A stretch of 64,000 bases of DNA from Stentor roeselii (taxonomy: Eukaryota > Ciliophora > Heterotrichea > Heterotrichida > Stentoridae): positions 202,566 to 266,565 of the forward strand of contig RSEH01000006.1 of NCBI GenBank assembly GCA_006503475.1. Reading direction: 5' to 3'. Shown here in pieces: positions 7,931-59,540 of the stretch (the first letter of the stretch is position 1; every line of letters starts with the position of its first letter). The position numbers and the translations under genes were made by a program. Under the pieces are notes generated by a model. The model made no database searches. It had not been told where the DNA came from and saw only the letters and a program-made list of their open reading frames with translations.

Positions 7931-9673
7931 ATGGAAGAGCCAATTCGAAAATCCCTCAGCAAAATCGAGCTGAAAATAATAAAAAACACATTCCTAAGCA
8001 ACTCAAACGACCTCCGTTACAAAGACGACACCCGAAAGTCTCTCCAAACCCTAACCAGTAAAAACTCAAATTCAATTCTTCCCCGTACAATCGATTTATC
8101 CGAAATCAGTCAAATTTCATCATCAGTCTCAAACCATTTCCGAATTTTTTCAATCCAAGAGCTAGACCTGAGTTGTTTAACAAGTCAAATCTCTCTCGAA
8201 ACTCTAGAAAACTTATCAGAAACAATAAAGACTTCCATAGGTGGGACCCAAATCACCCTTCCAGGAAAAAAGCTTTCATTCCGAAGCCTTTTAATAACAT
8301 CTCCAATTCATTTGAAAGGTTCAGCAGGAACATTGCTCGAGCTTCTCGACGGGTCGATAACAGTCGATTTTTCCAGTCAATCACGTGAAAGTTTGCTAGA
8401 AACAGAAAAAGCGATAATCTGCGAGGCAGCAATTTCACTAAAATCCTCTCGATTGATGCTTTCACTATTTTCAATAGAAAGTCCTTCAACACATTTAGAA
8501 GTTCGAGATTGTGATTTAAAAAGTGATTCTTCAAGTCCTGGAGACCTTTTCGCATTTGGAGTGAATTTAAGTGGCTTTCGTAAAGGAGCAAGTAGAAGTT
8601 CTTCGAGGTTTAACAGTTCTTTGATGGTCAGTTCTTGTAATATTCAGGGATTTGGAGATGTCTGTCGTGCGGGACCGAATTCTTCAGTGATTTTTGAGAA
8701 GTGTTATATTTGTGCATGTGAAGGCAACGCGATTTCAGTGATGAACCCAAGAGACTTCCAGGTGAAAAATTGTGTGATTGATAAGGCGGAGAAGTCAGGA
8801 ATAGACGTTTTTATCGCAGTTGATAATTCTTCTGTACTCAACTCGCCATCATCGAAGACTGACACCATGATGTCTTCTCAGTCAGAAAGAACTGTAAACA
8901 TCGAGGGAAACGACATAAGAACCTCAGGAAACTACGGAATTAGCATCTGGTCAGAAGCTCCTGCTTTTTTTCCAGCTTTCATTTCAGTAAAATCAAATAA
9001 AATCACAAATTCCAAGAAAGAAGGACTCGCTTTTCGTCATTTGAATTTAGTTTCTTTAGAAATTGATGGAAATGACTCAAATTGCAATCAAGGAACAGGA
9101 TTTTGGCTACAAAAAGTAATCGCTTCTAAAATTGTCTTTTGTCATAACCGCGCTTATGATAATTACTCCGGCTATGGCCTTTATTTTTATGATACTGGAG
9201 GAGAGGTGAAAAATAATGAGTTCTTCAGGAATAGTCTTGGAGGACTCATGGTTGTTGGAAGTTCAAAAGGCACTGATACCAACTTGGCCATTAAAAAAAA
9301 CCAGATTCATAGCAATGGAGAAAATGGAATCACTGTTATGGACTTTTGTAAAGGAATGATTTTAATTCAAAAATGCAATGTTTCGGAAAATTCTCAGGAT
9401 GGAGTTCATTTGTTGCAAACTAATCCTGATAAAAATTCAGCACTTGTTAAAATTTTAGACTCGGAAATCACTGGGAATTCTATGGTTGGACTTAATGTTG
9501 TTAAGTTTAGGTGCTGGATCGAAAAACTTAGAATCGCTGATAATTTGAATGGAAATATTGTCATTTCTGAAGATAGTAAGGAACTTGTTAGGTTCTTGGA
9601 TCAGAATGAAAAAAAAGTGGAGAAAAGTGAGAAAAAAGGATTGTGTGCGAAAAATAAATGTGTTGTGTTTTAG
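7931..9673 (+). CDS. Right-handed beta-helix protein with C-terminal CaaX box
   Basis: 580 aa. From about residue 230 to 540 it is a series of parallel beta-helix turns with recurrent N-x-I/V...N-G-I/D patterns (IEGNDIRTSGNYGISIWSEA, KKNQIHSNGENGITVMD, SEITGNSMVGLNVV), as in PbH1/NosD-type and SHCBP1-like proteins. There is no signal peptide, so it is probably cytosolic rather than a secreted polysaccharide lyase. The last four residues, Cys-Val-Val-Phe after a Lys/Asn-rich tail, form a CaaX prenylation motif, which would tether the beta helix to a membrane. The N-terminal 150 residues are unassigned. The domain call is firm; the ligand is unknown. Confidence 0.8.
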   Translation: MEEPIRKSLSKIELKIIKNTFLSNSNDLRYKDDTRKSLQTLTSKNSNSILPRTIDLSEISQISSSVSNHFRIFSIQELDLSCLTSQISLETLENLSETIKTSIGGTQITLPGKKLSFRSLLITSPIHLKGSAGTLLELLDGSITVDFSSQSRESLLETEKAIICEAAISLKSSRLMLSLFSIESPSTHLEVRDCDLKSDSSSPGDLFAFGVNLSGFRKGASRSSSRFNSSLMVSSCNIQGFGDVCRAGPNSSVIFEKCYICACEGNAISVMNPRDFQVKNCVIDKAEKSGIDVFIAVDNSSVLNSPSSKTDTMMSSQSERTVNIEGNDIRTSGNYGISIWSEAPAFFPAFISVKSNKITNSKKEGLAFRHLNLVSLEIDGNDSNCNQGTGFWLQKVIASKIVFCHNRAYDNYSGYGLYFYDTGGEVKNNEFFRNSLGGLMVVGSSKGTDTNLAIKKNQIHSNGENGITVMDFCKGMILIQKCNVSENSQDGVHLLQTNPDKNSALVKILDSEITGNSMVGLNVVKFRCWIEKLRIADNLNGNIVISEDSKELVRFLDQNEKKVEKSEKKGLCAKNKCVVF

Positions 9674-9744: not shown

Positions 9745-11214
9745 ATGAACTCTTCCATCACTTTTTCCAAATTTCCCACCACACTGACCGAGCCAAAAAT
9801 ATTCACTCTTCAACGAGAAATCGAGCAAATGACTCAAAGTCTCGAATTCGAAAAAAGAGAATCAACTTACCTAGACGAGCAAATAAAACTAATCCAATTC
9901 GAAATCAACTCTCTTCCAAAGCCCTCAAAATTGCGTCTTCTCGACTTAAAAGCCAAAATCTCAGTCCAAGAGCGTAAACTAGACCTTGAAATTTCCTCCT
10001 TAAACAATTCCAAGTTCCGAAACCGACAACTTCGAAGTCAAATCGACGAGTACCGCCTTGACAAAAGTGCCCACAAGCAGAGTTTAAACGCGATAAGTGA
10101 AAACTTAGGAAAAGTCTACAAAGAAGCTGACCAAGTGAAAGAAAACAACTTAAAAACTCAAGAAAATGACGAAGAAGAACAAGAAAAAATCTTAAAAATG
10201 CGAGTGCGAAGCGCGAGCCATCGTTCAGCCTACGACGAAAAAATGTCTCACCTTGCAAGTGTTTTAAGAAATTCTGACTTAAACAGTCGTTTTTTAATAG
10301 AAGATAAGACCTACGCTGCACAGAGCATTGAAGTGATAAGCGTTTTAAAGTCAACTTCAAGGTTCTCTCAAAAGTACTCTATTGACAAAAAACGATTTTT
10401 AGATAACTACTTGAAACATATCAACTCTTTGAAGTCAGGCTTTGAGTCTATTAAAACAGCGACTGGAATCAACGTGATTGAAGACATGGTCACTAGTTGT
10501 GTCAAAAGTGAAGAACAGAACTTGCAGGTCTTGTCTTATCTTAACTTGTTAAACGCTGAAATCGATTTACTTGAAGAAAGTTTGAAAAGTTATAAAAATA
10601 AAATAAGGATACTTGAAGGGTCTAAAAATCAAGGAAAAGTCAGCGTTGAAGAAATCAAAGCTTCTAATGAAGAACATTTTCGAAATGTTTTGCAGAGGCT
10701 CAGTGAAAAACAAGAAAAAAATCAAAAAATTTCAGATGAGGTTAAAAAATCGCTTCCTCTTGTCAAGCAGATTTTTTTGAATTTGATGAGAATTAACTTG
10801 AAAGGACTGACGATTAAGAAGATTGACTTGCAGGTTATTGATAAGTTGAACCAGGAATCAACGAGTTTGTTACTTGGAAATATTGAAGACTTTGTTATTA
10901 ACTTGTCAATTGTCGCTGATTTTAGAACTGATCATTTTTCTAGTCACTTCAAAGATACTGCAAAAAGTTCTGTCGGGTTTAAACCTGCTATTAAAGAACT
11001 CTTGGAAGAAAAGGACTTGTTTGATGAACCTGGCTTTGATGACATCAAAGTCCCGATATCTTTAGAAGAAATGAAAAATAAAGCTGTTTTGCATTATCAG
11101 AATAGAAAAAGCTTTTTAAGAAGCAAGCCAGGCACTCCTGATGCGACTTTAGGAAGGAATCATAAACGTGACTTAGCTAAGGAACAGAAAAACGTGAGGA
11201 TTCAGGCTTTGTAG
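9745..11214 (+). CDS. Coiled-coil protein, outer-dynein-arm docking (ODAD1/CCDC63) like
   Basis: 489 aa, coiled coil over most of its length. The segment around residues 85-135 (NRQLRSQIDEYRLDKSAHKQ followed by a short helix) resembles the core of the DC1/CCDC114/CCDC63 outer dynein arm docking proteins. The late segment around 310-395 (predicted helices, then a short LLLGNIEDFVINL) also fits their C-terminal region. In that family the protein links outer dynein arms to doublet microtubules, which would suit a heavily ciliated cell. The match is by pattern only and another ciliary coiled-coil family is possible. It is convergent with the ODR4 gene, with 12 bp between stops. Confidence 0.65.
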   Translation: MNSSITFSKFPTTLTEPKIFTLQREIEQMTQSLEFEKRESTYLDEQIKLIQFEINSLPKPSKLRLLDLKAKISVQERKLDLEISSLNNSKFRNRQLRSQIDEYRLDKSAHKQSLNAISENLGKVYKEADQVKENNLKTQENDEEEQEKILKMRVRSASHRSAYDEKMSHLASVLRNSDLNSRFLIEDKTYAAQSIEVISVLKSTSRFSQKYSIDKKRFLDNYLKHINSLKSGFESIKTATGINVIEDMVTSCVKSEEQNLQVLSYLNLLNAEIDLLEESLKSYKNKIRILEGSKNQGKVSVEEIKASNEEHFRNVLQRLSEKQEKNQKISDEVKKSLPLVKQIFLNLMRINLKGLTIKKIDLQVIDKLNQESTSLLLGNIEDFVINLSIVADFRTDHFSSHFKDTAKSSVGFKPAIKELLEEKDLFDEPGFDDIKVPISLEEMKNKAVLHYQNRKSFLRSKPGTPDATLGRNHKRDLAKEQKNVRIQAL

Positions 11215-16329: not shown

Positions 16330-18117
16330 CTATCTTTTTACCAAAGTTGCATAGCTTATAATAACAGCTGCAAGCCAAAACCCAATAGCTAGTCCAATTA
16401 ATCCAAAAGCACTGGTGCTAATATCACTACCATAATCAAATCTTTCATCCGGCTCAGGATTAACACCATCATTCAGATCAAGACCTTGAAATTCATTTCT
16501 AATTAACCCAGAGTGGCAATAATAAAGTGGTAAAAAATACCTAATATATCTGAAAACCATTGGAGTGGAATCTATATCAACTATAATTCCTGAAAACAAA
16601 ACAAAAATCACGGTAATTAAAGGAGATATAATCAGAACATCTCTAGATGACTGGCCTAGACTCCCAGATAAGGCTCCAGCAGACAAACAAGACAATAAGA
16701 AACAAACAGAAATCGTATAAAATATAAAAAATTTATCTGCAGACTCTTGGTTGAATCCTACTATGAAGTAGATTATAGAGACTACTACTAAAGTGCTGAT
16801 CACTGCAAGTGGGACTTCAACTAGAAAGATAGATAAATAATAGGATAATGGAGAGTATAATTTTTCTCTTATTTCTTTAGAAACTAGCTGTTTTTCATAA
16901 GCTATCATTATTGACAATATTAGAATTGGAGTAAATCCAATGCCATTCATAAAGTAAAGAATTGCACCATGACGGTCTTCTATACCTCTGTTGTCTTTAC
17001 CAAGATTGTGGAAAGTCAGACATAATAATGCACTAAAATATAAAGGTTGAATAATTTTTGCGTTTGTAATAAAAGGATTACGTTTGACTGAAATAAAGTT
17101 TCTCCAAACTAAGATTTTTAGTGATTGGAAAAATTTTGGATATTTAAGTTCTGTAAGTTTTTCATCACCAGTTAATACTTTCATATTTTCCCAGTCTTCT
17201 TTGTAACATCTCTCTAATCTTTCCATTATCTCAAATTCATGTCTTTTAATATCAAACCTGTCTTCAATATTTAAAATCCTCATAAAAAAATCAGCAGGAT
17301 TTAAATCTTTCCCTATTTCAAATCCTGCCTTTCTAAAATGATCACCCGACTCACCAACCCTTCCAGAATAAACAAAATTTCCATCTTGCATAATAATCAG
17401 CCTATCAATCATCTGAAATATTCTAAACCCAGGTTGATGAATACTGCAAATGACATTCGCTCCTGACCTCGAAATACTTTTAAGTATTTCAATAACTGAT
17501 AAAGCCATAAAGCTATCCAGTCCTGAAGTAGGTTCATCAAGAATTAAAACAGAAGGTCTACTGATGACCTCTGATGCAATAGCAAGTCTTTTCTTTTCTC
17601 CTCCAGAAAGTCCTTTAATCAAGGCGTTTCCTATGATTGTATCCTTTACAAGTTCTAATCTGAACTTTTTCAGTAATTTAATCACTTTTAATTCTACTTC
17701 TTTTCGACTTTTTCCTGTTTTAAGAGATATGAAAAAGGTTAAAATTTCAAAAGGAGTCATGAAATCGAATAAGTGGGTTTCTTGTGGAAGGTATTTCAGA
17801 TGTTGATGGAAAGGATTGGATTTTGAATCTTTTCCATTTATTGTCAATGATCCTGTCAAGGAGTAACTTGTTGAAGGAATGGTTCTTTGTGATAAGATTG
17901 ATAGTAAGGAAGTTTTTCCACTTCCTGAAGGGCCCATGATTGCTGTGAGTTCTCCTGGATTTGCAAAGCCAGAGATATTTTTAAGGATTTTAAGAGATTT
18001 TCGTGGAGTTTTTACTGTGAAATTGATATTTTTCCAACAGACAAGTGCTGGGACAATTTGTTTATTGTTTTCTAGATATTCAAGAAGTGGTTGCTTCTCG
18101 AATTCCATTATAATCAT
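16330..18117 (-). CDS. ABCG-family half transporter
   Basis: About 595 aa from MIIMEFEK at 18117; the frame runs upstream to 18177, but the short N-terminus before the ATPase fits the family better. Order is ATPase then membrane domain, diagnostic of the ABCG/White subfamily. Walker A GPSGSGKT is near residue 62, signature LSGGEKKRLA near 170, Walker B LILDEP near 191, then a switch His in CSIHQPGF. Five or six membrane segments follow from about 360. The protein must dimerise to work. Substrate is unknown; White-type transporters move sterols, pigments and precursors, which is worth noting for a possibly pigmented heterotrich, but this is not shown by the sequence. Confidence 0.92.
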   Translation of the reverse strand: MIIMEFEKQPLLEYLENNKQIVPALVCWKNINFTVKTPRKSLKILKNISGFANPGELTAIMGPSGSGKTSLLSILSQRTIPSTSYSLTGSLTINGKDSKSNPFHQHLKYLPQETHLFDFMTPFEILTFFISLKTGKSRKEVELKVIKLLKKFRLELVKDTIIGNALIKGLSGGEKKRLAIASEVISRPSVLILDEPTSGLDSFMALSVIEILKSISRSGANVICSIHQPGFRIFQMIDRLIIMQDGNFVYSGRVGESGDHFRKAGFEIGKDLNPADFFMRILNIEDRFDIKRHEFEIMERLERCYKEDWENMKVLTGDEKLTELKYPKFFQSLKILVWRNFISVKRNPFITNAKIIQPLYFSALLCLTFHNLGKDNRGIEDRHGAILYFMNGIGFTPILILSIMIAYEKQLVSKEIREKLYSPLSYYLSIFLVEVPLAVISTLVVVSIIYFIVGFNQESADKFFIFYTISVCFLLSCLSAGALSGSLGQSSRDVLIISPLITVIFVLFSGIIVDIDSTPMVFRYIRYFLPLYYCHSGLIRNEFQGLDLNDGVNPEPDERFDYGSDISTSAFGLIGLAIGFWLAAVIISYATLVKR

Positions 18118-18340
18118 ACCTATAAACTCTTTAAAAAACGGTGAAATTTTAATTATAAATTTAAAAACGAAGATCAAATCATATTCTCTAAAAATCTGTA
18201 ACCAATTCGGAAAATTTCAAGAATTTCTTATTGATGAATATCTCGCCCTTCTAATCTAGACTAAAATCTTCTAACTATCAGGTTGTCTCCAGTTTCAAAA
18301 CTTTAAGCCAATCTCACATGCCAATTAATGGTTAATAAAA

Positions 18341-45356: not shown

Positions 45357-47318
45357 TCATCCTTCAATCATCCCAGCTTCAACAAGGACTTTTCTGTACT
45401 TTTCTCTATCAGCAAAGCTGAAATCTCCATTATGCCCACATTCAACACTAATCAACCCTCCCGCTTTTTTCCAGTCCTGAGCAATTAAAATTTCATCAGG
45501 GCCAGCAGACCTCCTTCCAGACCTTTCAAGAAGTCCATCATAAACAAGATCCAAGCACTTAGCAATGACTTCAACATCTTTCCAAAGTTCAGCCTCTTCA
45601 AGATCCTTCATCACAGAAGCCAAGATCCTCAATTCTGCGACATGTCGAATTAAAAAGCTGCTTGTTTCTTCTCCATCAATTCCCCAGACCTCAAGAACCA
45701 TGAACCAAACCTGAAGTTCCAAAGCAGGTCTTTTTGCTTTTGTCAATTCGAGAAGTCGAAGGCCGCCAGCTTGAATTTCATTTAAAATTTTTACAGTCTT
45801 TCTGAGATTATTTTTAAAGCCTGGGTCTTCTCCTTGCTCAGTCTTCACATTTGCTTTGATTTCTTCTTTTGTTGAAATTTCTGTTAAGAGCGTCCAGGAA
45901 TTTGAAATGTTTTTTAAAGACCTGCAAACTGCCCTGCCTGATTCTTTTGAGATTATGCATGAAAAGTCCTTGGATATGTTTTTTAGAAGAAGATCTCTGA
46001 TTGAATTGTACCTTGGACTGAATAGAGCCAGAGCGACGCCTGACTTTAAGGATGATAAGTTCTTGATCATTTGGTCGTTTGGGTCGTTTACGATTAGCTT
46101 TGGACTTTCGAAGGAAAGATAGACTTCAGTCGTGTCCATGTCTTTGTGGCCTGTTAGGCGAAATAAGTAGTAGGCTAACTTTCCGTATTTTACTAAGATT
46201 GCACTGAATAGAGAACTGTAGGTACGGTCACAGAGAAGGAAGTCGGGATTGGTTACTTTAGCTATATGGGCAGCGATACACCCTCCAAGAGACTCTCCAT
46301 GAATACCGATTTTAGAATATTGAAAGTTTTCCTTGATATAATTAACGATTTCCACCCCATCATCAACAAGCAAGGGTAAATAAGGTGAGCCAGTTGACCT
46401 TCCATACCCACGATAATTCCAAAGTACCAAATTAACTCCATTAGTAAGATAAAACTCACTCCAATTAGTCTGAAAGTAGAAGTATTCAAAATACCCAGCA
46501 TTTCCATTGCATATAAGAAAAACAGTTTCAGCTTTTTCTTCCAAACTCAGATGAAGACTACTTAATTCTTACCAGTCAATAATCGCCTTTCCCCTCCTAA
46601 CTTTAAACTCAGTGCATTTAAATCTATTAAGCAAGTCACTTCTCATATATTCAATGCTTCCAATGCTATCATTGAACCAACTCAAGAACATCCTGACCCA
46701 TCCCTTGCTTTCAAAGCATTCTTCAAGAAAAGAAATAAACATAATACAGCAGTTTAATGCAAGATTCGCAGAAGTTGTCTGAAAAGAATCATTCAAAGAG
46801 ACCTTCGTAACATTCGAGCAGTCTTTTTTGACATCAAACCATTCGAACAAGTTAAATTCTTCAGAGTCATTGACAGTGATCTGGACCTTTTCTAAGTGAT
46901 CCTTCAGATCAACCAGATGATTGAAGATCTTTCGTTGATACCTGGAAAGTTTTGGCATTGTTGAGTAGATTTTAATCAGAGACGATATGAATGAGTTGAG
47001 GTTCTCAATTCGATAGTCCTTTAATTGAGAACTTTTCAGAATTAGAAGTTCTAGATAGTCTTTTAGATGAGAGACTTTTTCGTGAATTTGTTGAGAAAGC
47101 TCTTTTCGGTAGGATAACTCGTGAGCTTTAAGCACGAAAGATGAGGATCCTGGGTAAATCGTTTTGTAAACTATTGATCGGAATATCAGCCAGAGGACTA
47201 GCAGGAAGATTGCACTTGATATTGAAAGGCTTAGGTAATGAACTAGAATGCAAAGAACTATTGTCAGACATGATAGGAGAAGGATACCTAAAATAATCAG
47301 AAAATTGGAAAGTTTCAT
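45357..47318 (-). CDS. Membrane-anchored alpha/beta hydrolase, 2 exons (~648 aa)
   Basis: Two frames join across a 15-nt intron at 46558-46572 (gtaagaattaagtag) into one protein of about 648 aa; the split codon becomes Cys in RRGKAIIDC. The N-terminus has two membrane segments (about 5-50), then a helical cytosolic stretch to about 245. The alpha/beta hydrolase follows: ICNGNAG oxyanion strand, WNYRGYGRSTG, nucleophile elbow GIHGESLGG with Ser near residue 338, and a late GHNGDF providing the catalytic His. The closest relatives I know are ABHD12/13/17-type serine hydrolases; the substrate is open. The stop is TGA, followed two codons later by an in-frame TAA. Confidence 0.85.
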
Positions 47319-49158: not shown

Positions 49159-52100
49159 CTAGTCTATTTTCTCTAAAATTTTGCTTAGTCCTTTTTCAAT
49201 TAGATCAAGTCTGCATTCTAAAAATTCTACTGATTTTTTATTAGATTCTTGAACTTCTCTAATCTTTTCCATTAAAACCTCTTGACATTCATTCAACTTT
49301 TCCTCAAATCTTCCAAAATCTTCAAGTTTTCCACTCTGATCACTTCCTTTAAATTCTCCTCTCTCTCTTAAAATCTTCTCAATCCCTTTAACCTGTTCAT
49401 TCAAGTCATCCAAACACATCTTAGTCCCATTATACTGACCCTCAACAAAGCTCTGATTATCTTTCAAATTTTCCTGAACTCTATCAATTTTAATCAAACT
49501 TTTCTCAATTTCAGGTAAAACACTACCTTCAACTTTTTCAGCAATTCCAGAAGCCATACTCGAAAAAGAAAACTTAATATTTTTATCAATGTTTTCAATC
49601 AAATTTTGAAGATAACTAATTCTTCCTTGCCAGAAATATTGTTCTTCCATTTCCTCCATATTGACAACATGAAAAAGACCATAAAAATTACTGCTTTTTT
49701 TCCAAAAAAACATTTTTTCAACTTCAAAAACAAGTTGAGCCTTTTCCAAGTAATCGACGATGACCTTCTCAATTTGGAACTGGTCATAAGAATCTCCAAG
49801 AATGGAGATTAAAAGATTAAGCATGACTACTAAGTTAATCAAAGTGGCTCCAATAAAAATAAAGATCCCGAGAGGACTTTTATTATTTTCTGTTTCATAA
49901 ATCCCGAAGTTCAAGCTGTACATATCAAGCCATAAAGTGTTGAAGCTCAGATCTTTTTGATCCTTAGCTGAATAAAGTGCTCCAAACATCAGGTTGGAAT
50001 AAACAAAAAGTAAAAGAAAGTATTTAACATCATTCACTGCACGGAAAATCAGGTTTATGTAAAATCGTGTTCCATCAAACATGTGAAAAGCTGTCAGTCC
50101 TCTAATGAAATTAAGTAAAATAACAAGGATTTCCAAGTATTGAATATCAGGAAGTATTAACCAGACACAAGTCGCAGCTACTCGGACTAAATCGATGAAG
50201 TTCCAAATATCTGAAAAGTATTTTAAGCCTAAAGTTAATACCTGAGCTACTTCCCAAATTAAGAGAAAAGCATTCAGAACTATGAAAATAACAAGATTAA
50301 TGAAATTAGGATTAGAATCAGTCATCACTATTAGAAAAACCAAGTTACTCAAAAGCAGCAATGAATACAAAAACACCCAAATTCTTACTGATTTCCAATG
50401 AAAGTCAATGTAGCTCATCACAAATGTCGTTGAAAAAATGTTGGTTTTTTTACAATTCAACATTGATTCTAACAATTCTATACTTTTTAAAGACCCTGGA
50501 ATGTAAGGTACCTCGAAAGGAAGATGACTGAAAATAACAGTAACTGGATCGATTTGATTCGTGTTGTTATTAAATTGATTAGAAAGAAAATCTGATTCAC
50601 TTGGATTGTAGAATTGATTGAAAGAATACGAAGGAAATTCAATTTCAGAAGATATCAAACCATGACTGCTCTGAATAAGACACAAACTTAAAAATATTTC
50701 TATTTTTCTTATCGAATTTCTGATAATCATAGCAAATTCACCTGAAATAGCAAATAAAGAAGTTTGGAAAAAAGCTGCTTCAGGACTTTCAAACAATAAA
50801 ATAATCGAATCCATCAAAATCTCTGCACATTTTAGATGCTTTCTTTGAATGGCGTAGAAAAAGGGAGACTTTCCAAATATATCTCGAGTGATTAGTCCTT
50901 CAGGAGTAAGAACTTTTTGTAAAGTCTCGCTTAGCCCAAGATAAGAGAGAAAATGTGAGACAGTGAAATAAAACCTGCTGATAATAATCAACCTGGCAGA
51001 TTCTGACAAGTCTCCAAACTTTAAATCTTTAAGCGAGTCGATCACATTGAAAAAAATAGATTTTTCCTGGTAAAAAGCATCAAAAGAAGAGTAAGGCGAA
51101 TAAAAACTAGCGATAATTTCATTATTCTCATCATAAACATGTCCAAAGCTCTTCCCATCTGAAGAAATCATTAAATTTGAATCAGTCACTCTAGAAAAAT
51201 TCTCCCCATTCATTTTTTTTTCGTCAATTTCCCAAATTTTAACGGTATTATCTTCAGAAGCACTGAATAAAACCCCATTCGAACTAAAAGCCAAAGATCG
51301 TACAGGCCCTAAATGTCCTGAAAGGTCGAATTGCAGCCGTCTTTCACTAACATTCCAGACCTTCACTAAAAAATCCTCACCCCCACTGATTAAATATTTA
51401 CAATCAGGACTTTCAACTAATGCTAAAACTGATTCTGAATGTCCAGCAAGTTTAAAAACTTCTCTTTTTGCCTCAAAATCCCAGATCCTAACAAGACAAT
51501 CAACTGACCCAGTCGCAAAAAATTTTTCATTTTGAATCAAAAGAACTGTTAAAAAACTAGAAAAACCTTGAATTGTAGAAATTTCAGTTTTTTTCAAAAG
51601 ACTCCAGATTTTTATTGTGGAATCTTCTGAGACACTTATAATTTCTTGATTTTTTGAGAGTTTTATGCAGCTTACTCCACTTTTATGCCCTCTTAATGTG
51701 GCAAGAACGGTTTTTGATTGAATATTCCAGATTTTTATAGAGTTATCGAGAGAACTACTGAGAATTTGCTTGGAATCACTTGTTAATTGTAAAGACTTTA
51801 CGCCGTTGGTATGTTCTTTTGGGTTTTTTAGCATTGTCTTGGTAGAAATATCCCAAAAGCCTAGAGAGCAGTCTTTTGAACCAGTGATAAGCAAGTTTGA
51901 CTCTGGAAGAAATGCGAGACAAGTGACAATATCTGAATGGCCCATAAGAACAGCTTCCTCTTCAAACTTGAGAAGGTTAAATATTTTAACTGAAGAGTCA
52001 GTTGCCAAAAAAATCCGATTTTCTGATAGAATCACTTCTTCAATCTTTGCAGAAAAACCTTTAAAAACAGATCCTTCAACATTTTCTTTTACTTTCCAAG

Positions 52101-54327
52101 TTCGAATTGTTTTATCCCAGGAGCAAGATAACAATTCATTAGAGTTTATTTGAGCTAAACTGTAAATTTTATCAGTATGAGCTGAAAATGACTGAATTTC
52201 TGTGAAGTTATCAAGATTCCAAATTTTTATCAGTTTGTCATAAGAACAACTTGCCAGGAGTGACTTGTTAATCTTGATAATACAAGAAATTCCATCTTTA
52301 TGACCTGTTAAAGTCCCAATCAATGTTTTATCTTTCAAGCTCCAGATCTTGATGACTGCGTCAAATGAAGAGCTGATAAGTTGTTTATTTTCTTCATCAC
52401 AGACAAGGCACCAGATGCCTTTTGAGTCTCCATTTAACACAAATGAAACCTGCTTTGATTCCAAGTCCCAAAACAAAATTTTTCCTTCAGCGCCTCCAGT
52501 GATGATGTTATTTTCATACTTGCATAAAGAAATAACTCGATTGTTGTGTCCTTGAAGAGAAAAATCTTCTGTTCTGCTTTTGATGTCCCAGATGCGAATT
52601 GTTTTGTCCCAAGAGCAACTTGCGATTTTTTCATCATTATGCAAGAATTTCACATTTCTTACACAGTCAGTGTGGCCTTTTAAAGTAAATTCCAGTCTTT
52701 TCTTAGGAAGACTCCAGACTTTTATAGTCTTGTCAAGTGATGCAGTCGCGACGAGGCTGTCATTGTCTGAGACTGAAACATCCCAAACAGTGTCTTGATG
52801 GCCTTTAGAAGAAAAGTAAAGACTTTTCGTTTCAAAGTTCCAGATTTTAACCTCTCCACTTTTAAGTCCACAGACAAGCTTTTGCTTGTCGTTTGAAAGA
52901 CAGAGAGACATAGTTCTATCTGAAGGCCAGGATATTGTCTTTGGCTGTTTTAAGAAATTCCAAGTTTTTAGACTTCCATCAGTTGAGCCGCTGATGAGTT
53001 TTTGGTTATTTAAGAGAAACTTCAAACCAAGGACTGCACCTTTTGAATGACCTGATAGAAAAAATTCGATTTTTCTTTTTTTTGTATTGAAAATAATGAT
53101 TTTTTCAAGTGAAGCATAAGCAAGTCTAGTCTCGTCTGGACTGAGACATAAACTTTGAATGAAATTCGCTTCAGTTGGAGTGGAATACAGAAATTTTTTA
53201 TGCTGAAGACTAAGAACTTTCACGTTTTTATCTTGAGATGCTGTGAAAATTTCGTTTGACTTGCTTAGCAAAAGAGATGTGATATAACTGTTGTGCACTT
53301 GGAATGAAAAGTCAATTGCTTTGCTTTCAAGGTTCCAGATGTTGATTAATTTATCTTCTGAACCGCTGATGAGACTTTTACTGTCGTTTGAGAAAACGAT
53401 TGAAGTGACGTAGTCTGTATGACCTGTCAAGGTGAACTTTTCTTTGAAATTGGAAAGGTCCCAAAGCTTTATTGATTTATCTTTTGAACCAGTTCCTGCG
53501 GTTTGATTGTTTTTACTTATAGCTGTGGTTAAAATTATATCAGAATGGCCAGCAAGTGAATTGATTACTTTCATTTTCATTAGATGAAGTACGAGTGTTA
53601 TATTTTTATCTGTTCCACAGATCGCTATTTTATTTTTGTTGTCTGTTGTTACCGTATAAACTTTTCCTATGGTCAGAGTAAGAAATTGTGATAGTTTTAA
53701 TTTTTGGATGTCCCAGATTATCATATTTTCGTCTTGTGAGCAGGACAAGAGAGTTTTATCATTTATCAGGCAAATATCTCTGACCCAACCCCCATGTCCC
53801 CTAAGCACAGCTTCAATCTTCCTCGCCTCAATATTCCAAATGATAACAGTTTTATCATCAGAACAGCTCGCAAGTTTCCTTTCTTCACATATCAAAGCTA
53901 AACTCCTGACAAATCCATTATGTCCTTTCAAGACAAACTCCTCTTTTCTTTCTTTCCACTTCCAAAACTTAATATCTTTGCTATAAGATGCGCTAATCAA
54001 GACCCGTTCATCTTTGGTAAGAAGAAGTCTTCTAATCGACCCTTGTCCTTCAGCAACTGTGAGTTCTTCAACAAATGTTTCAGAATTCCAGACTTTAATC
54101 GACTTATCCTTTGACCCCGTGATTAAAAACTTGTCGTCTTGAGTGATGCAAAGAGCCCAAATCTGGTCAGAATGTCCTGAAATGCAAATTTCTTCTAAAT
54201 TTTTTTCGAAATCCCAGATTTTCAGGCAATTGTCTTCTCCTCCACTTGCAATTTTCTTGGAATTTTTGAAAAATTTCAAACAAACTGCGACATGAGTGTC
54301 TTTTGAGAGAATTGTTTTTACTTCCAT
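49159..54327 (-). CDS. WD40-repeat / TRP-like ion channel, 3' part of a split gene
   Basis: 1722 aa. Residues 1 to about 1010 hold about 24 WD40 repeats (for example LKGHNGFVRSLALI, GSKDKSIKLWDLS). An ankyrin-like helix pair follows at about 1120-1160 (GKSPFFYAIQRKHLKCAEIL). The channel domain then has about six membrane segments: S2-S5 include FSDIWNFIDLVRV, and the pore and S6 end VVMLNLLISILGDSYDQF, as in TRP-type channels. A coiled coil of about 120 residues ends the protein. It starts with Met only in the middle of a WD blade; the preceding frame (54333-55694) encodes the missing start, so this is the 3' part of one gene. Confidence 0.87.
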   Translation of the reverse strand: MEVKTILSKDTHVAVCLKFFKNSKKIASGGEDNCLKIWDFEKNLEEICISGHSDQIWALCITQDDKFLITGSKDKSIKVWNSETFVEELTVAEGQGSIRRLLLTKDERVLISASYSKDIKFWKWKERKEEFVLKGHNGFVRSLALICEERKLASCSDDKTVIIWNIEARKIEAVLRGHGGWVRDICLINDKTLLSCSQDENMIIWDIQKLKLSQFLTLTIGKVYTVTTDNKNKIAICGTDKNITLVLHLMKMKVINSLAGHSDIILTTAISKNNQTAGTGSKDKSIKLWDLSNFKEKFTLTGHTDYVTSIVFSNDSKSLISGSEDKLINIWNLESKAIDFSFQVHNSYITSLLLSKSNEIFTASQDKNVKVLSLQHKKFLYSTPTEANFIQSLCLSPDETRLAYASLEKIIIFNTKKRKIEFFLSGHSKGAVLGLKFLLNNQKLISGSTDGSLKTWNFLKQPKTISWPSDRTMSLCLSNDKQKLVCGLKSGEVKIWNFETKSLYFSSKGHQDTVWDVSVSDNDSLVATASLDKTIKVWSLPKKRLEFTLKGHTDCVRNVKFLHNDEKIASCSWDKTIRIWDIKSRTEDFSLQGHNNRVISLCKYENNIITGGAEGKILFWDLESKQVSFVLNGDSKGIWCLVCDEENKQLISSSFDAVIKIWSLKDKTLIGTLTGHKDGISCIIKINKSLLASCSYDKLIKIWNLDNFTEIQSFSAHTDKIYSLAQINSNELLSCSWDKTIRTWKVKENVEGSVFKGFSAKIEEVILSENRIFLATDSSVKIFNLLKFEEEAVLMGHSDIVTCLAFLPESNLLITGSKDCSLGFWDISTKTMLKNPKEHTNGVKSLQLTSDSKQILSSSLDNSIKIWNIQSKTVLATLRGHKSGVSCIKLSKNQEIISVSEDSTIKIWSLLKKTEISTIQGFSSFLTVLLIQNEKFFATGSVDCLVRIWDFEAKREVFKLAGHSESVLALVESPDCKYLISGGEDFLVKVWNVSERRLQFDLSGHLGPVRSLAFSSNGVLFSASEDNTVKIWEIDEKKMNGENFSRVTDSNLMISSDGKSFGHVYDENNEIIASFYSPYSSFDAFYQEKSIFFNVIDSLKDLKFGDLSESARLIIISRFYFTVSHFLSYLGLSETLQKVLTPEGLITRDIFGKSPFFYAIQRKHLKCAEILMDSIILLFESPEAAFFQTSLFAISGEFAMIIRNSIRKIEIFLSLCLIQSSHGLISSEIEFPSYSFNQFYNPSESDFLSNQFNNNTNQIDPVTVIFSHLPFEVPYIPGSLKSIELLESMLNCKKTNIFSTTFVMSYIDFHWKSVRIWVFLYSLLLLSNLVFLIVMTDSNPNFINLVIFIVLNAFLLIWEVAQVLTLGLKYFSDIWNFIDLVRVAATCVWLILPDIQYLEILVILLNFIRGLTAFHMFDGTRFYINLIFRAVNDVKYFLLLFVYSNLMFGALYSAKDQKDLSFNTLWLDMYSLNFGIYETENNKSPLGIFIFIGATLINLVVMLNLLISILGDSYDQFQIEKVIVDYLEKAQLVFEVEKMFFWKKSSNFYGLFHVVNMEEMEEQYFWQGRISYLQNLIENIDKNIKFSFSSMASGIAEKVEGSVLPEIEKSLIKIDRVQENLKDNQSFVEGQYNGTKMCLDDLNEQVKGIEKILRERGEFKGSDQSGKLEDFGRFEEKLNECQEVLMEKIREVQESNKKSVEFLECRLDLIEKGLSKILEKID

Positions 54328-54332
54328 TCTTT

Positions 54333-55694
54333 CTAGGTCCCAAAGGATGATTGTCTGTCTTTAGAGCCGCTTACTAGCAAGTGGTCTTTAGCGTCAAGAC
54401 TCCAGATTTCTTTTGAGTGAAAGGAAAGAGAATTCCTTTTTAAGGTTTCAGGGTCCCAGACCTTTATAAGTCCATTTGAATGCCCACTGATGACGAAGGC
54501 TTCATTTTTTGCTAGACATAAACAGATCGAATTTTCTTTTTCTGAACTTTGAAAAACTTCACTTTCATTTGTTTCCATATCAAAAACCCTGACAGTACCA
54601 TCAAAAGAAGCAGTTAAAAATGATTTACCGTCATTTGTGATGTCTATTTGTCTGATTTCATCAGAGTGAGGATAAAAAGTTGTATCATCTCGTTTTTCAT
54701 CAGCAGTCCAAATTTTAAGTGATTTATCATTGCAACCTGTGACAATAATGCTTCCATCATAGTTGACTCCAATACAACTGGCGGTCTTTGGATATAAACT
54801 AATTGAAAAAGTCCTCTGTCGAAGTTTCAAGTTCCATATGTAGTTAAAATAATCATCAGAGCATGAAACTAAGAACTCGTTATTCCCAGAGAACCTGATA
54901 CAATTAATTCTTTCACCATCTAAAAAGCTATATTCCATTTGAAATGTCTTCGCATTCCAAATTTTAATATTTTTTTCATACTCAGCACTTGCGAAGTGAC
55001 TCATATCCCGAGTGACTGCCAGTGAAACTACTTTAAAAGAACAGCTGAAAAGATCTTGGACATGCGAGAGTGAATCAATACTCCAAACTTTCACTGACCC
55101 ATCAACTGACCCAGTGACCAGGAAGGATTCAAAAGAAATGCAAGTTAAAACTTCATGTGAATGACCTTCGAATGAATAAATCAACTGACCTGAAAAGTCC
55201 CAGAGTTTGATTGACTTATCATTTGACCCAGTCACTATCATTTTTTTGGACTCAATGAAATTGACTGAGTTTATTTTGTCTAAATGGCCGATGAAGGTGC
55301 AGAGTGCTTGTCTTGAAGTCAAGTCCCAAAGCTTTACTGTCTTATCTGAGGACCCACTCACTAACAGACTGTCATCTGATGAAAGAGTTAAACAGAGCAC
55401 TTCGTCTGAGTGGCCTTCGAGGACTGTCCATGGTTTTTTGAATAGCAGGCTCCATATTATTATTTTTGAGTCACTTGACCCGCTGATTATCGACTTTTGG
55501 TCTGAGGTTATCTCGATGGCATTTATTGAACCACTGTGACCTTCAAGGTCCCCAGCTATTGTTCTTAGCTCGGCTTCAAGGATATCCAAGGGCGATACTA
55601 CTTGGTGGGTGTTGAAGAGGATGGGCTCTTTAGAAAGCAGAGGGATAGTCAGAGGCATTGGTGATAAGGAGTTTTTAGAGACACCAGAAAACAT
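54333..55694 (-). CDS. WD40 / ion-channel gene, 5' part before an apparent frameshift
   Basis: 453 aa starting at the Met at 55694 (MFSGVSKNSLSPMPL) with about 10 WD40 repeats. It ends abnormally in the middle of a blade as ...SGSKDRQSSFGT. In the next frame the same bases read TIILWDLERMEVKTIL, so one missing nucleotide near 54350-54360 joins it to the 49159-54327 frame. The joined protein would be about 2,175 aa with about 34 WD repeats. No 15/16-nt GT...AG intron covers the break. The cause (assembly error, mutation or frameshifting) is undecided. Confidence 0.85.
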   Translation of the reverse strand: MFSGVSKNSLSPMPLTIPLLSKEPILFNTHQVVSPLDILEAELRTIAGDLEGHSGSINAIEITSDQKSIISGSSDSKIIIWSLLFKKPWTVLEGHSDEVLCLTLSSDDSLLVSGSSDKTVKLWDLTSRQALCTFIGHLDKINSVNFIESKKMIVTGSNDKSIKLWDFSGQLIYSFEGHSHEVLTCISFESFLVTGSVDGSVKVWSIDSLSHVQDLFSCSFKVVSLAVTRDMSHFASAEYEKNIKIWNAKTFQMEYSFLDGERINCIRFSGNNEFLVSCSDDYFNYIWNLKLRQRTFSISLYPKTASCIGVNYDGSIIVTGCNDKSLKIWTADEKRDDTTFYPHSDEIRQIDITNDGKSFLTASFDGTVRVFDMETNESEVFQSSEKENSICLCLAKNEAFVISGHSNGLIKVWDPETLKRNSLSFHSKEIWSLDAKDHLLVSGSKDRQSSFGT

Positions 55695-56316: not shown

Positions 56317-57804
56317 TTGTATCTACTAAGCCTGGATTGGACTGAAAAAATTAACATTTTTGATGAAAAAAGAGAATTTCAATTGTCTGAAACAAAAGAG
56401 CTATTCAATAAATACCAAGAGAATAAAACATGGGAAACATTGCTAGAGCTGTTAATTTCAAATATTGTTTCTCAGTGCATTTGTAATAAAAATATATTAT
56501 TCGGTAAAGACCGTTTCTTTGCTATCACACTATTCAGATTATTGGAAAAAATCTCAAAAAATGAGACAATAAATAAAACTCATATTAAAAATTTGAAGTA
56601 TATCTACGAGCTCATTTCAATTAATTCGAGCAGATTACTCTATTTTTACTCAGAACGGAATTTAAAATCTTATAAAATATTAGACAACATTTCGAGCCTT
56701 ACTGAAATTACCCAAGAATTATTAAATAATTTAAACCAATTTGAAGATCACCAAAAATTTATTTTTTTAAGTTATTTTCACACACTAAAATTGAAACCAG
56801 AAATTATCGAAAAAGCGCCGCTGCTTTACTCACTCTCTCAAACAGGCAAGATTATTTATTCTGTTGACATTTTGAATTGGATTTTAAAAGAAACCAAAAT
56901 CATTGTAAAATTAAATGAATTTAAAAACCAAATCTGTACCGAAGAAAAATTTTTGATCCTAGAGCAGAGTAACCTCATGAAAAACTTAGAAAAAGCAGTT
57001 AAAACACCAAGTAATTTCAAATTCATGTTTATGAATCAGCTTCATGCTAGGTATTTTAATTCAAAAGAAAGAAGTAACTTTAGAGATTTATGTTCAAATT
57101 CCTCTGAATTTTTAATAAAAAATGCTGAAAATTGTAAAAAATTACTTCAAGCCACAGATAATTCAATGCCTGAACTTTTTACAATTTTAAAACTCTTAAA
57201 TCTGAAACAAACTTTAGAAATCTTTTTGGAGGTTCTAGAAAATTTAAGTAACTATAAGGCTTTAAATCAGTATTTAAACACTATTCAAGATCTTTTTAAT
57301 TTGAAACCATGGAAGGACCTTATTTATTCTTTTTTATTTAAAAGATTGAATAATCTACCAAGAGATATTCAAGAGCTATTGAAAAATAAGAATCAATTAA
57401 AAGAGATGCATGATCAGATCAATAAAATAACTAAAATACTTGATTATAAGCCTTTGGCTATTTTCGAAAACAAAAGCAATAAAAACAATAATTTAATTAT
57501 TGATGGAATATTGATATTGGACGGTATTTTAAGGAATCATATAAAATCAAATGTTGATTATAATGAAAATTTAAAAATTTTCTTGAATTTAAAGGATATT
57601 TTTATAACTACCGAAGATTTGTATAAATTATTAAAAAAAGTAGAAAAAATATATGATCAAACAGATTTTCCTTTAATTCGTTATTCAATAATTATAGTTT
57701 ATTGTTCACCACTGATATTGAAAAGATTTATTGGCTTAGAGAAAGTTAGATACACTTCATTGCTATCTTATTTTAAAACCATATTTATTTGGTATCCATA
57801 TTAA
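56317..57804 (+). CDS. Large helical protein, first half, no ATG start
   Basis: 495 aa, leucine- and lysine-rich, all helical, no family recognised. The frame opens with TTG at 56317 and the first internal Met comes only after about 215 residues; the nearest in-frame stop upstream is 56257-56259 with no ATG between. No 15-nt intron places an exon upstream. It runs directly into the next ORF, with stop TAA and ATG two bases apart in a different frame, and may be one broken gene. Possibly a pseudogene or 5'-truncated copy. Confidence 0.45.
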   Translation: MYLLSLDWTEKINIFDEKREFQLSETKELFNKYQENKTWETLLELLISNIVSQCICNKNILFGKDRFFAITLFRLLEKISKNETINKTHIKNLKYIYELISINSSRLLYFYSERNLKSYKILDNISSLTEITQELLNNLNQFEDHQKFIFLSYFHTLKLKPEIIEKAPLLYSLSQTGKIIYSVDILNWILKETKIIVKLNEFKNQICTEEKFLILEQSNLMKNLEKAVKTPSNFKFMFMNQLHARYFNSKERSNFRDLCSNSSEFLIKNAENCKKLLQATDNSMPELFTILKLLNLKQTLEIFLEVLENLSNYKALNQYLNTIQDLFNLKPWKDLIYSFLFKRLNNLPRDIQELLKNKNQLKEMHDQINKITKILDYKPLAIFENKSNKNNNLIIDGILILDGILRNHIKSNVDYNENLKIFLNLKDIFITTEDLYKLLKKVEKIYDQTDFPLIRYSIIIVYCSPLILKRFIGLEKVRYTSLLSYFKTIFIWYPY

Positions 57805-57806
57805 TC

Positions 57807-59540
57807 ATGAAAGAAACTAATGAAAATAATCAGGACGAATGCATAGAGGAGATAAATCTCAAAATGAAAGAATTGAAAAATATGAACCCTTTTAAAAACA
57901 TTCAATTAATTTTTATGTGTTTGTTGAATGAGTTGATAAATTTGGTTATAAAAAATCATACAATCCATGATATATTAATGTCGATGAAAGATGAAAATTA
58001 TAGAATCAGTCAGTTCCATTCAATTATAGATTCTTACTCATATAATGTGATCAATGCTGTTGATAATCGAAAAAGTTTGACATGCAAGCAATTTTTAATT
58101 TACTATTTTAGATCTTGTCTTATAGATGCAGAAAGCTTATTTACCCAAAACTTTAACAGAAAGTCTTTCACACAAAGTGATTTAATAAGCCAAGTTGGTG
58201 AAAAACTTTATCCTCTTGTCAAAGTTTTCTTTAACTTTGAAGCTGAAATCAGTGCTTTAAACAATCTTTCTTCAGTAATTATCTTCTTGAATCACTTACT
58301 CAGAATTTTTTCATATAAACTCACAAGATCAGAGGCAAAAGTAAAGAAACTTGATGAAATATTTATAAAAAATTATGAAACTGAAGCTTTATTCCAGAAA
58401 TTTGAGATTTCATTAAAAGTCATAATAGAAAACTTGCAAAAAATTACTCTGATAACAAATAAACCTGATATTAGAGAACTTAGCAGCCTCAGCCGGCACT
58501 GCACTCTTGATTATTTCTTAATTGATGAAAATAAAAACGAAAAAGGGATCCACTTGGCTAATCTTCTCAAGTTTATGTGTCAAGTTCATAATGGACTAGC
58601 GATTATATTAGGAAAAATAAAAAATGAAAAGATCTTTAACTTAGAAAACTTTGATATCAAAAAATACAGAATTCAAAAGATTTATAACAAAAAAATTAAT
58701 TACACAAAGAACACAATCAATTCAATTTGCCAAAAATTTAGCATAAACGACCCATCTAGTCTTTATTTTGAAACTTTCTTTGATTTTGAAAGTCTTGAGA
58801 ATTCTTTGTCTGGCCTTTTTAATATTGATGAAATTCTCGAAACAAGACAACTTGACACTATTCAATATTCAAACGAAATTTTTAATTCATCAAGTAAGCA
58901 CAAAGATTTGATCCAGGAACTTAGGATCAAGGGCTACTCAGAAAAATTAAATGAAAGTTTAAAAAAACAGTTGATAGACCCACTTAAGAAGATAAAACAG
59001 AAAAGCGAAATTTTAAAGTTGGTCTTTGAAATGATGATTTATATTAATCAAGTGGATTGTGATACCTTAAAAAACACTTCACTAGATAAATTTATTGTTG
59101 GAGAGTCAGGTATAAGAGAAACTCTTCCAAATTTTATCAGAACGATTTCTATCATTAAATCAATTAAAGTCAGAAATATTGTAACTGTTTTAGAGATCAT
59201 TGAAGAGACTTGCTTTCATGATTTTACTTCATGGATAATAAATGAATGTAAAAAAGAAACTATTAAGGAAGAATATGTCCAGAAGTTTTTTAAATATTAT
59301 AATGAAGATATTCACCCAAGTAAAACGGAAATTATTCTAGCTTTAAAGAGAGTTATGCTTAGAAATTTAACTTCAGAGATAGATATTTCAGAACCGATTC
59401 TTGGATATTTGGAAAATAGATCAGTTTGGGAGTTTTCTGAAGAAAAGATGTATAAAGCTGAAAAAATGTTAGTTGATTGCATTTCCGCTGATATGCCAAT
59501 TGAAAACATTTACGCATTTTATAAGAGATTAAGTAATTAG
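57807..59540 (+). CDS. Large helical protein, second half (~577 aa)
   Basis: About 577 aa from the ATG at 57807 (MKETNENNQDECI). All-helical Leu/Lys/Ile-rich protein without membrane segments; no domain I recognise. Its C-terminus (LPNFIRTISIIKSIKVRNIV, ...EDIHPSKTEIILALKR) is somewhat like the C-terminal part of giant RNF213/mysterin-type proteins, but this is only a faint impression. Composition and codon use match the upstream frame, so the two probably derive from one gene that is now in two frames (relative shift -1). Confidence 0.5.
   Translation: MKETNENNQDECIEEINLKMKELKNMNPFKNIQLIFMCLLNELINLVIKNHTIHDILMSMKDENYRISQFHSIIDSYSYNVINAVDNRKSLTCKQFLIYYFRSCLIDAESLFTQNFNRKSFTQSDLISQVGEKLYPLVKVFFNFEAEISALNNLSSVIIFLNHLLRIFSYKLTRSEAKVKKLDEIFIKNYETEALFQKFEISLKVIIENLQKITLITNKPDIRELSSLSRHCTLDYFLIDENKNEKGIHLANLLKFMCQVHNGLAIILGKIKNEKIFNLENFDIKKYRIQKIYNKKINYTKNTINSICQKFSINDPSSLYFETFFDFESLENSLSGLFNIDEILETRQLDTIQYSNEIFNSSSKHKDLIQELRIKGYSEKLNESLKKQLIDPLKKIKQKSEILKLVFEMMIYINQVDCDTLKNTSLDKFIVGESGIRETLPNFIRTISIIKSIKVRNIVTVLEIIEETCFHDFTSWIINECKKETIKEEYVQKFFKYYNEDIHPSKTEIILALKRVMLRNLTSEIDISEPILGYLENRSVWEFSEEKMYKAEKMLVDCISADMPIENIYAFYKRLSN

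What the first reader, a model, noticed from the sequence alone, without database searches (positions are those of the whole stretch)
49159..55694. Probable ~2,175-residue WD40-ankyrin-TRP-like channel gene
Directly read: about 34 WD40 repeats, an ankyrin-like helix pair, then S1-S6 of a TRP-like channel ending NLLISILGDSYDQF, then a coiled coil. WD40 arrays fused to an ion channel are not a textbook animal TRP arrangement, and the cell type (a large contractile, mechanosensitive ciliate by inference) makes a signal-scaffold channel attractive. The fusion of a very large propeller array to a pore is the most interesting protein in the window.
Basis: partly seen in the sequence, partly recalled or inferred. 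Interest (0 to 1): 0.8.

Follow-up and report, generated by a model that had tools for sequence, protein, structure and literature searches.

The report
Five-propeller WD40-ankyrin-TRP channel gene family
In this ciliate-like genome a TRP-type ion channel is fused to a long chain of WD40 propellers, and the gene belongs to a very large family of related channels, which may be a sensory repertoire of a single-celled organism.

Summary
The finding holds and is larger than described. On the minus strand, 55694-49159, two ORFs (453 and 1722 aa) encode 10 and 25 WD40 blades, then an ankyrin-like pair, an Ion_trans/TRP pore with TRP helix, and a charged tail. The frame changes inside blade 10 (about 54348-54365). 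The closest paralogue is collinear with both ORFs in one uninterrupted 2199-aa frame, so this is one gene, broken here by an assembly error or early decay. The genome holds at least 141 related channel loci (this one included). I read the part before the channel in 35 of them: WD40 runs in frame in 33, lies in broken pieces in one, is absent in one. Arrays of 14, 21, 28 and 35 blades predominate (15 of 22 counted, 15 of 17 clear ones), i.e. whole seven-bladed propellers; clear arrays of 31 and 39 break the rule. A two-propeller model scores pLDDT 86.9. Nearest solved pores by sequence are TRPV3 and TRPM8. I read it as a tetrameric TRP cation channel whose cytosolic propellers are docking or tethering arms. 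Function, gating and species are inferred. Eight searches of open-licence papers showed no description of it.

The parts
55569..55694 (-). N-terminal leader of the gene (residues 1-42 of ORF 2), start ATG
   Evidence: translation; blade register
54699..55568 (-). WD40 blades 1-7 (proposed propeller 1)
   Evidence: own WD40 HMM register; Pfam WD40 E 5e-63 for the ORF
53827..54698 (-). WD40 blades 8-14 (proposed propeller 2), holding the frame change
54348..54365 (-). zone in blade 10 where the reading frame changes (no WD40 residue lost to within one; the frame of ORF 2 stops at 54333-54335)
   Evidence: three-frame translation and collinearity with paralogue C245
52957..53826 (-). WD40 blades 15-21 (proposed propeller 3)
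52090..52956 (-). WD40 blades 22-28 (proposed propeller 4)
   Evidence: AlphaFold2 model pLDDT 86.9; Foldseek
51217..52089 (-). WD40 blades 29-35 (proposed propeller 5)
   Evidence: AlphaFold2 model with a low-confidence break at model residues 299-308, at the junction of blades 28 and 29
50809..50964 (-). ankyrin-like pair (YTxLHxLAxxG ... DxFGKSPLFYAI in the family consensus)
   Evidence: phmmer match to a designed ankyrin protein at query 82-133 (E 0.0067); consensus; Ank_2 in 18 of 33 members
49774..50385 (-). Ion_trans domain, S1-S6 with pore
   Evidence: Pfam PF00520 31.4 bits; family profile matches TRPV3 E 3.3e-6 and TRPM8 E 5.8e-6
49708..49776 (-). TRP-helix-like segment after S6
   Evidence: aligned with the corresponding segment of TRPV3
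49159..49640 (-). charged C-terminal tail, possible coiled coil, then stop
   Evidence: weak heptad signal; one of 33 members matches TRPM_tetra

Best explanation
This locus is one gene, on the minus strand from 55694 to 49159, for a very large TRP-type cation channel subunit (two ORFs of 50.7 and 196.3 kDa as assembled). Its cytosolic N-terminus is a chain of five seven-bladed WD40 propellers, followed by a short ankyrin-like linker, S1-S6, a TRP helix and a charged tail. By analogy with other TRP channels four subunits would assemble, so one channel would carry about twenty propellers. The propellers most likely act as docking or tethering arms: they bind cytoskeletal, ciliary or signalling partners, and the binding or pull is passed through the ankyrin-like linker to the pre-S1 region and TRP helix to open the pore. 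Shown here: domain order, blade count, fusion in single-frame paralogues, family size, predicted fold of two propellers. Inferred: tetramer, cation flow, cytosolic side, docking, gating by partner or force. The copy in this window has one frame change in blade 10, so it is either an assembly error or a recently broken member of the family.
For: WD40 and Ion_trans by Pfam; 35 blades by register. Six joined paralogues each run from WD40 to channel in one frame of 2120-2263 aa, and eleven more in frames of 1174-2598 aa. Both window ORFs are collinear with paralogue C245. At least 141 channel loci counting this one, 130 of them with an open frame of 1000 aa or more. WD40 in 31 of 31 scanned upstream parts and, by the home-made HMM, in C106, one of the weakest-matching loci. 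Pore and TRP helix align with TRPV3. AlphaFold2 of blades 22-35 gives pLDDT 86.9, and Foldseek's best match is the propeller structure 2ymu (E 3.0e-43, 590 alignment columns). The channel tree groups the window with other 35-blade copies.
Against: The channel model made from one sequence is worthless (pLDDT 37.8), so no predicted fold of the pore supports the assignment. PDB sequence matches are modest (best 2.5e-6) and divided between TRPV3 and TRPM8. Ion_trans passes E 0.01 in only 20 of 33 members. Blade counts of 31 and 39 in two clear arrays, and of 37, 26, 22, 13 and 11 in degenerate ones, do not fit whole propellers. The propeller model began at a boundary that I chose, so the seven-plus-seven split is partly built in, and its overall match to 2ymu is loose (TM 0.45 and 0.47, rmsd 12.7), so the placing of the two rings is not the same. 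The window copy is broken as assembled. The upstream part was read in 35 of 141 loci only. Nothing tests gating, location or partners.
Confidence: 0.6

Rival explanations
1. The window copy is a recently broken gene (pseudogene) of a real WD40-TRP family; it makes no full-length channel.
For: Frame change inside blade 10 with a stop at 54333-54335. Other copies are clearly decayed: C31 has in-frame stops and no WD40 match in the 1.5 kb held upstream; C19 has WD40 pieces in shifting frames. 11 of 141 loci have open frames under 1000 aa (some may be cut by contig ends).
Against: Only one break in about 6.5 kb; the 25 downstream blades, pore and tail are open. A single-base assembly error would look the same.
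Confidence: 0.3
2. Two independent genes: a 453-aa WD40 protein and a separate 1722-aa WD40-channel.
For: Two ORFs as assembled; the second has an ATG just after the break.
Against: Paralogue C245 covers both parts in one frame, and five other paralogues run from WD40 to channel in one frame. The WD40 unit continues across the break, and the residues just before the second ORF's ATG still read as WD40 sequence.
Confidence: 0.04
3. The pore is a six-helix cation channel outside the TRP family (polycystin-, Kv- or CatSper-like).
For: PKD_channel matches 3 of 33 members; Kv chains appear in the profile search (E from 7.1e-5).
Against: TRPV3 is best in both PDB searches of the membrane part and its match runs through S6 into the TRP helix; an ankyrin module precedes S1; by eye the window's S4 segment holds few arginines (sequence printed).
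Confidence: 0.08
4. The WD40 array is not a set of closed propellers but an irregular chain whose length is free to vary, with multiples of seven due to shared ancestry.
For: Clear arrays of 31 and 39 blades; no seven-blade periodicity in blade-to-blade similarity; members of one length cluster in the tree.
Against: 35 occurs in two groups of the tree (the second weakly placed), 28 in one, 21 and 14 each in one clade, so several changes ended on multiples of seven; the model shows two halves with a break after seven blades and its best match is a propeller structure of similar length.
Confidence: 0.15

Closest known systems
TRPV3 / TRPM8 (animal TRP channels)
   Same: S1-S6 and TRP-helix region align (TRPV3 E 2.5e-6 for the window protein, and 3.3e-6 for the family profile; TRPM8 5.8e-6, without the S6-TRP-helix part)
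   Different: Their N-termini are ankyrin repeats (TRPV) or the TRPM homology region (recalled); here 14-39 WD40 blades precede an ankyrin-like pair
NOMPC (TRPN), PDB 5vkq
   Same: TRP pore behind a long cytosolic repeat arm; top match of the whole-family profile (E 7.6e-25), driven mostly by ankyrin repeats
   Different: NOMPC's arm is 29 ankyrin repeats (recalled); here the arm is WD40 propellers, so any likeness of function is analogy
Protist TRP channels: TRP-like ion channel 6pw4 (Chlamydomonas TRP1, recalled) and ADF1/TRP15 (PMC5068960, passages)
   Same: Protist TRP channels; 6pw4 matches the family profile at E 7.2e-5
   Different: In the passages read, ADF1 is a TRP channel and the WD40 domains belong to another protein, FAP16; no fusion is described there
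Repetitive propeller structure 2ymu (14 blades, recalled)
   Same: Best Foldseek match of window blades 22-35 (E 3.0e-43, 29% identity)
   Different: Overall superposition is loose (TM 0.45-0.47, rmsd 12.7); the chain of 577 residues is titled a propeller structure, with no channel named

Membership tests
TRP channel superfamily | Six-helix Ion_trans domain with pore between S5 and S6 | tested here: met
   PF00520 31.4 bits over the 25-bit cut-off in the window; 20 of 33 members at E 0.01. Sequence only; the fold prediction failed
TRP channel superfamily | TRP helix directly after S6 | tested here: met
   Sequence alignment only, with TRPV3
TRP channel superfamily | Assignment to a named animal subfamily | tested here: inconclusive
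   TRPV3 and TRPM8 score alike; no tree with animal channels was made
TRP channel superfamily | Tetramer that conducts cations | not testable with these tools
   needs expression and recording or cryo-EM
TRPN / NOMPC | Long ankyrin-repeat arm (about 29 repeats, recalled) | tested here: not met
   Only an ankyrin-like pair; the arm is WD40
WD40 repeat protein | WD40 blades of about 42 residues | tested here: met
   PF00400 E 6.8e-154 and 5e-63; spacing 40-43 residues in the window
WD40 repeat protein | Closed seven-bladed propellers | tested here: inconclusive
   Model pLDDT 86.9 with a break after seven blades and multiples of seven in 15 of 22 arrays; but the cut was mine, and 31 and 39 do not fit
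Polycystin (PKD2) | PKD_channel domain | tested here: not met
   Window E 0.51, under cut-off; 3 of 33 members at E 0.01
Heterotrich ciliate (Stentor-like) origin | Standard code and 15-16-nt introns (PMC9505925, passages) | tested here: inconclusive
   Long frames read by the standard code; 15-nt GT-AG stretches cover 5 of 13 candidate stops, one of them antisense to this gene, against 1 and 2 of 13 for two control motifs

The most novel reading that the evidence does not exclude
A single-celled organism has evolved a repertoire of well over a hundred TRP channels whose sensor arms are WD40 propellers, with array length changing mostly by whole propellers and sometimes by amplification of single blades: a birth-and-death family comparable in spirit to animal chemoreceptor families, in which the propeller chain decides what stimulus or partner opens the channel.
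Probability: 0.35. Interest if true: 0.88.

Novelty: new variant of a known kind. Interest (0 to 1): 0.68.

Why it matters
TRP channels are known with ankyrin or TRPM-type cytosolic arms (recalled); a WD40-propeller arm is a different sensor design on the same pore. At least 141 loci in a 44 Mb genome compares with 28 TRP channels in mammals (abstract of PMC7312350 as shown in the listing). It would give a concrete gene set for the old question of how large ciliates sense touch and chemicals without neurons. Because array length varies among related copies, the role of the arm can be tested directly.

Tried and rejected
Intron as the cause of the frame change: rejected, because a 15-nt intron keeps the frame and a 16-nt one would leave extra residues, and none are there. 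Programmed frameshift: not supported, since the zero-frame stop is not at the shift site, and the 17 joined paralogues have one open frame; left at low probability. Seven-blade periodicity in blade similarity as a sign of propeller duplication: looked for, not found. Structure of the channel from one sequence: pLDDT 37.8, discarded. A first alignment of 21 blades was messy and not used. Relatives in viral contigs (600 pattern matches) and prokaryote contigs (17 pattern matches): none confirmed by tblastn. Identifying the organism by ribosomal protein L3: best match 5xxb, not decisive. Long Ion_trans frames without WD40 (L043-L046) were first suspected to be family members; L043 and L046 are IP3/ryanodine-receptor-like. 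Literature: eight searches listed no paper that I recognised as describing a WD40-TRP fusion; only the listed titles and abstract starts were seen, of open-licence text. Passages of PMC5068960, PMC7935092 and PMC9505925 were read; a term search of PMC9882060 for WD40, TRP and channel found nothing. The Stentor genome paper PMC5659724 is not held. Eukaryote protein databases could not be searched, so similar unannotated entries may exist.

Full report
What was checked. The window lies at G000:C495:202566-266565 of a 44.4 Mb assembly of 522 contigs. The gene is on the minus strand. ORF 2 (54333-55694, 453 aa) is N-terminal and ORF 1 (49159-54327, 1722 aa) is C-terminal. Pfam reports WD40 in both and Ion_trans, over its curated cut-off, in the last third of ORF 1.

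Blade count. A WD40 HMM built from 133 motif-anchored stretches of the window and six paralogues found 10 blades in ORF 2 and 25 in ORF 1. A register count, with spacing of 40-43 residues in the window, gave the same 10 + 25 = 35. The HMM is home-made from these proteins, so it cannot by itself prove that they are WD40 repeats; Pfam does that independently.

One gene or two. The closest paralogue, C245, has a single frame of 2199 aa. ORF 2 aligns with its residues 7-456 at 45% and ORF 1 with 472-2199 at 39%. The frame changes inside blade 10, about 54348-54365, with no WD40 residue lost to within one. An intron does not explain this. So the locus is one gene that is broken as assembled. I cannot tell an assembly error from a young pseudogene. 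Decayed copies do exist in the family: C31 and C19.

The family. The window's channel part matches 65 places in the genome, itself included. Two more searches, with the membrane parts of two paralogues, raise the union to 141 loci, each at E 1.3e-18 or better in one of the three searches; this is a lower bound, because only the best candidates are scored. The places were copied by hand from the three answers into the script. Of the 141, 130 have an open frame of at least 1000 aa: 88 of 1000-1399 aa, 15 of 1400-1799 and 27 of 1800 or more. I aligned 33 channel parts, the window and 32 paralogues. These were not a random sample: they are the best matches and the last four, without C31. The upstream part was read in 35 of the 141 loci: the window (Pfam), 31 paralogues (WD40 by Pfam in 31 of 31), C106, one of the weakest-matching loci (WD40 in frame by the home-made HMM), C19 (WD40 pieces in shifting frames) and C31 (none in the stretch held).

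Propellers. By register, with hits of 5 bits or more, blade counts are 35 in six arrays (window, C245, C136, C149, C97, C30), 28 in one (C307), 21 in six (C324b, C273a, C165, C2a, C314, C383) and 14 in two (C2b, C77). Gaps between hits are filled by interpolation, so a degenerate blade is counted where the spacing demands one. Two clear arrays are not multiples of seven: C183 with 31, of which 24 are closely similar 41-residue units, and C273b with 39. C514b (37) is degenerate. Four more full frames (C76, C172, C236, C446) are degenerate and give 13, 26, 22 and 11 (4, 26, 21 and 11 at a threshold of 10 bits). So 15 of 22 arrays are multiples of seven, 15 of the 17 that I judge clear. The naive probability (1e-10 for 15 of 18) ignores kinship; grouping by clade, a grouping that I chose, gives 5 of 8, p about 0.002. 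The tree places lengths in clusters, with the window beside other 35-blade copies. I looked for a seven-blade period in blade similarity and did not find it.

Structure. AlphaFold2 of blades 22-35, with other window blades as alignment rows, gave pLDDT 86.9 and pTM 0.53, with a low-confidence break between blades 28 and 29. Foldseek's best match is the repetitive propeller 2ymu (14 blades, recalled) at E 3.0e-43 over 590 columns, but TM-scores are 0.45 and 0.47 and rmsd 12.7, so the rings are placed differently. My cut started at blade 22, so the phase of the split is partly imposed. The single-sequence model of ankyrin plus channel failed (pLDDT 37.8).

The pore. phmmer of the window part matches TRPV3 (2.5e-6) from the S3 region through S6 and the TRP helix. 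The family profile of the membrane part matches TRPV3 (3.3e-6), TRPM8 (5.8e-6) and a TRP-like channel, 6pw4 (7.2e-5); Kv channels appear from 7.1e-5. The profile with the ankyrin part is dominated by ankyrin matches, NOMPC first (7.6e-25). Ank_2 matches 18 of 33 members. The pore is TRP-like, without clear assignment to a subfamily. The C-terminal coiled coil is weak, though one of 33 members matches TRPM_tetra.

Organism. Standard code, 34% GC, an ODAD1-type dynein-docking gene in the window and candidate 15-nt introns fit a heterotrich such as Stentor, whose introns are 15-16 nt and whose code is standard (PMC9505925, passages). The intron test is weak: 5 of 13 stops against 1 and 2 of 13 for two control motifs, and one of the five is antisense to this gene. 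The species is not established.

Mechanism. Inferred: a TRP tetramer of 35-blade subunits would carry about twenty propellers. WD40 propellers usually bind proteins (recalled; also stated in a passage of PMC5068960), so the arms probably tether the channel to cytoskeleton or signalling partners and pass load or binding state through the ankyrin-like linker to the TRP helix. Family size, amplified blades in C183 and decayed copies suggest birth and death as in sensory receptor families; this is an analogy, not a result.

Novelty. The pore is a known kind and WD40 is a known kind; I recognised no description of the fusion or its scale in the listings of eight paper searches, which cover open-licence text only. 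No eukaryote protein database was available. No relative was confirmed in viral or prokaryote contigs. I file it as a new variant of a known kind.

Noticed in passing
window 45357-47318 (-): Two ORFs (45357-46544, alpha/beta hydrolase, and 46569-47318, no Pfam match) are in one frame and would be joined by removing a 15-nt GT-AG stretch at 46558-46572, a tiny-intron candidate.
   Followed up: partly
window 9745-11214 (+): ODAD1 central coiled-coil match (E 1.4e-17), pointing to an organism with motile cilia.
   Followed up: no
window 56317-59540 (+): Two ORFs of 495 and 583 aa overlap by 16 nt in different frames, with no Pfam match; possibly one gene with a frame change or a tiny intron.
   Followed up: no
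G000 C55, C97, C46, C80, C131, C502 and others: Several ORFs of about 1400-1860 aa each carry more than one strong Ion_trans domain, like four-domain voltage-gated calcium or sodium channels.
   Followed up: no
L043 550-8517 (-) and L046 1304-9448 (+): Open frames of 2656 and 2715 aa are IP3/ryanodine-receptor-like (Ins145_P3_rec, MIR, RIH_assoc, Ion_trans); L044 and L045 have frames of similar length but were not scanned.
   Followed up: partly
C425:4599-6200 (+) and C425:7407-9014 (-), L019/L020: Two WD40-TRP paralogues that are sisters in the tree stand tail to tail in a 14.8 kb contig, an inverted pair that may reflect duplication or an assembly artefact.
   Followed up: no
window 7931-9673 (+): Right-handed beta-helix protein (Beta_helix E 6.4e-23).
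   Followed up: no
window 16330-18177 (-): ABC transporter with ABC_tran and ABC2_membrane domains.
   Followed up: no
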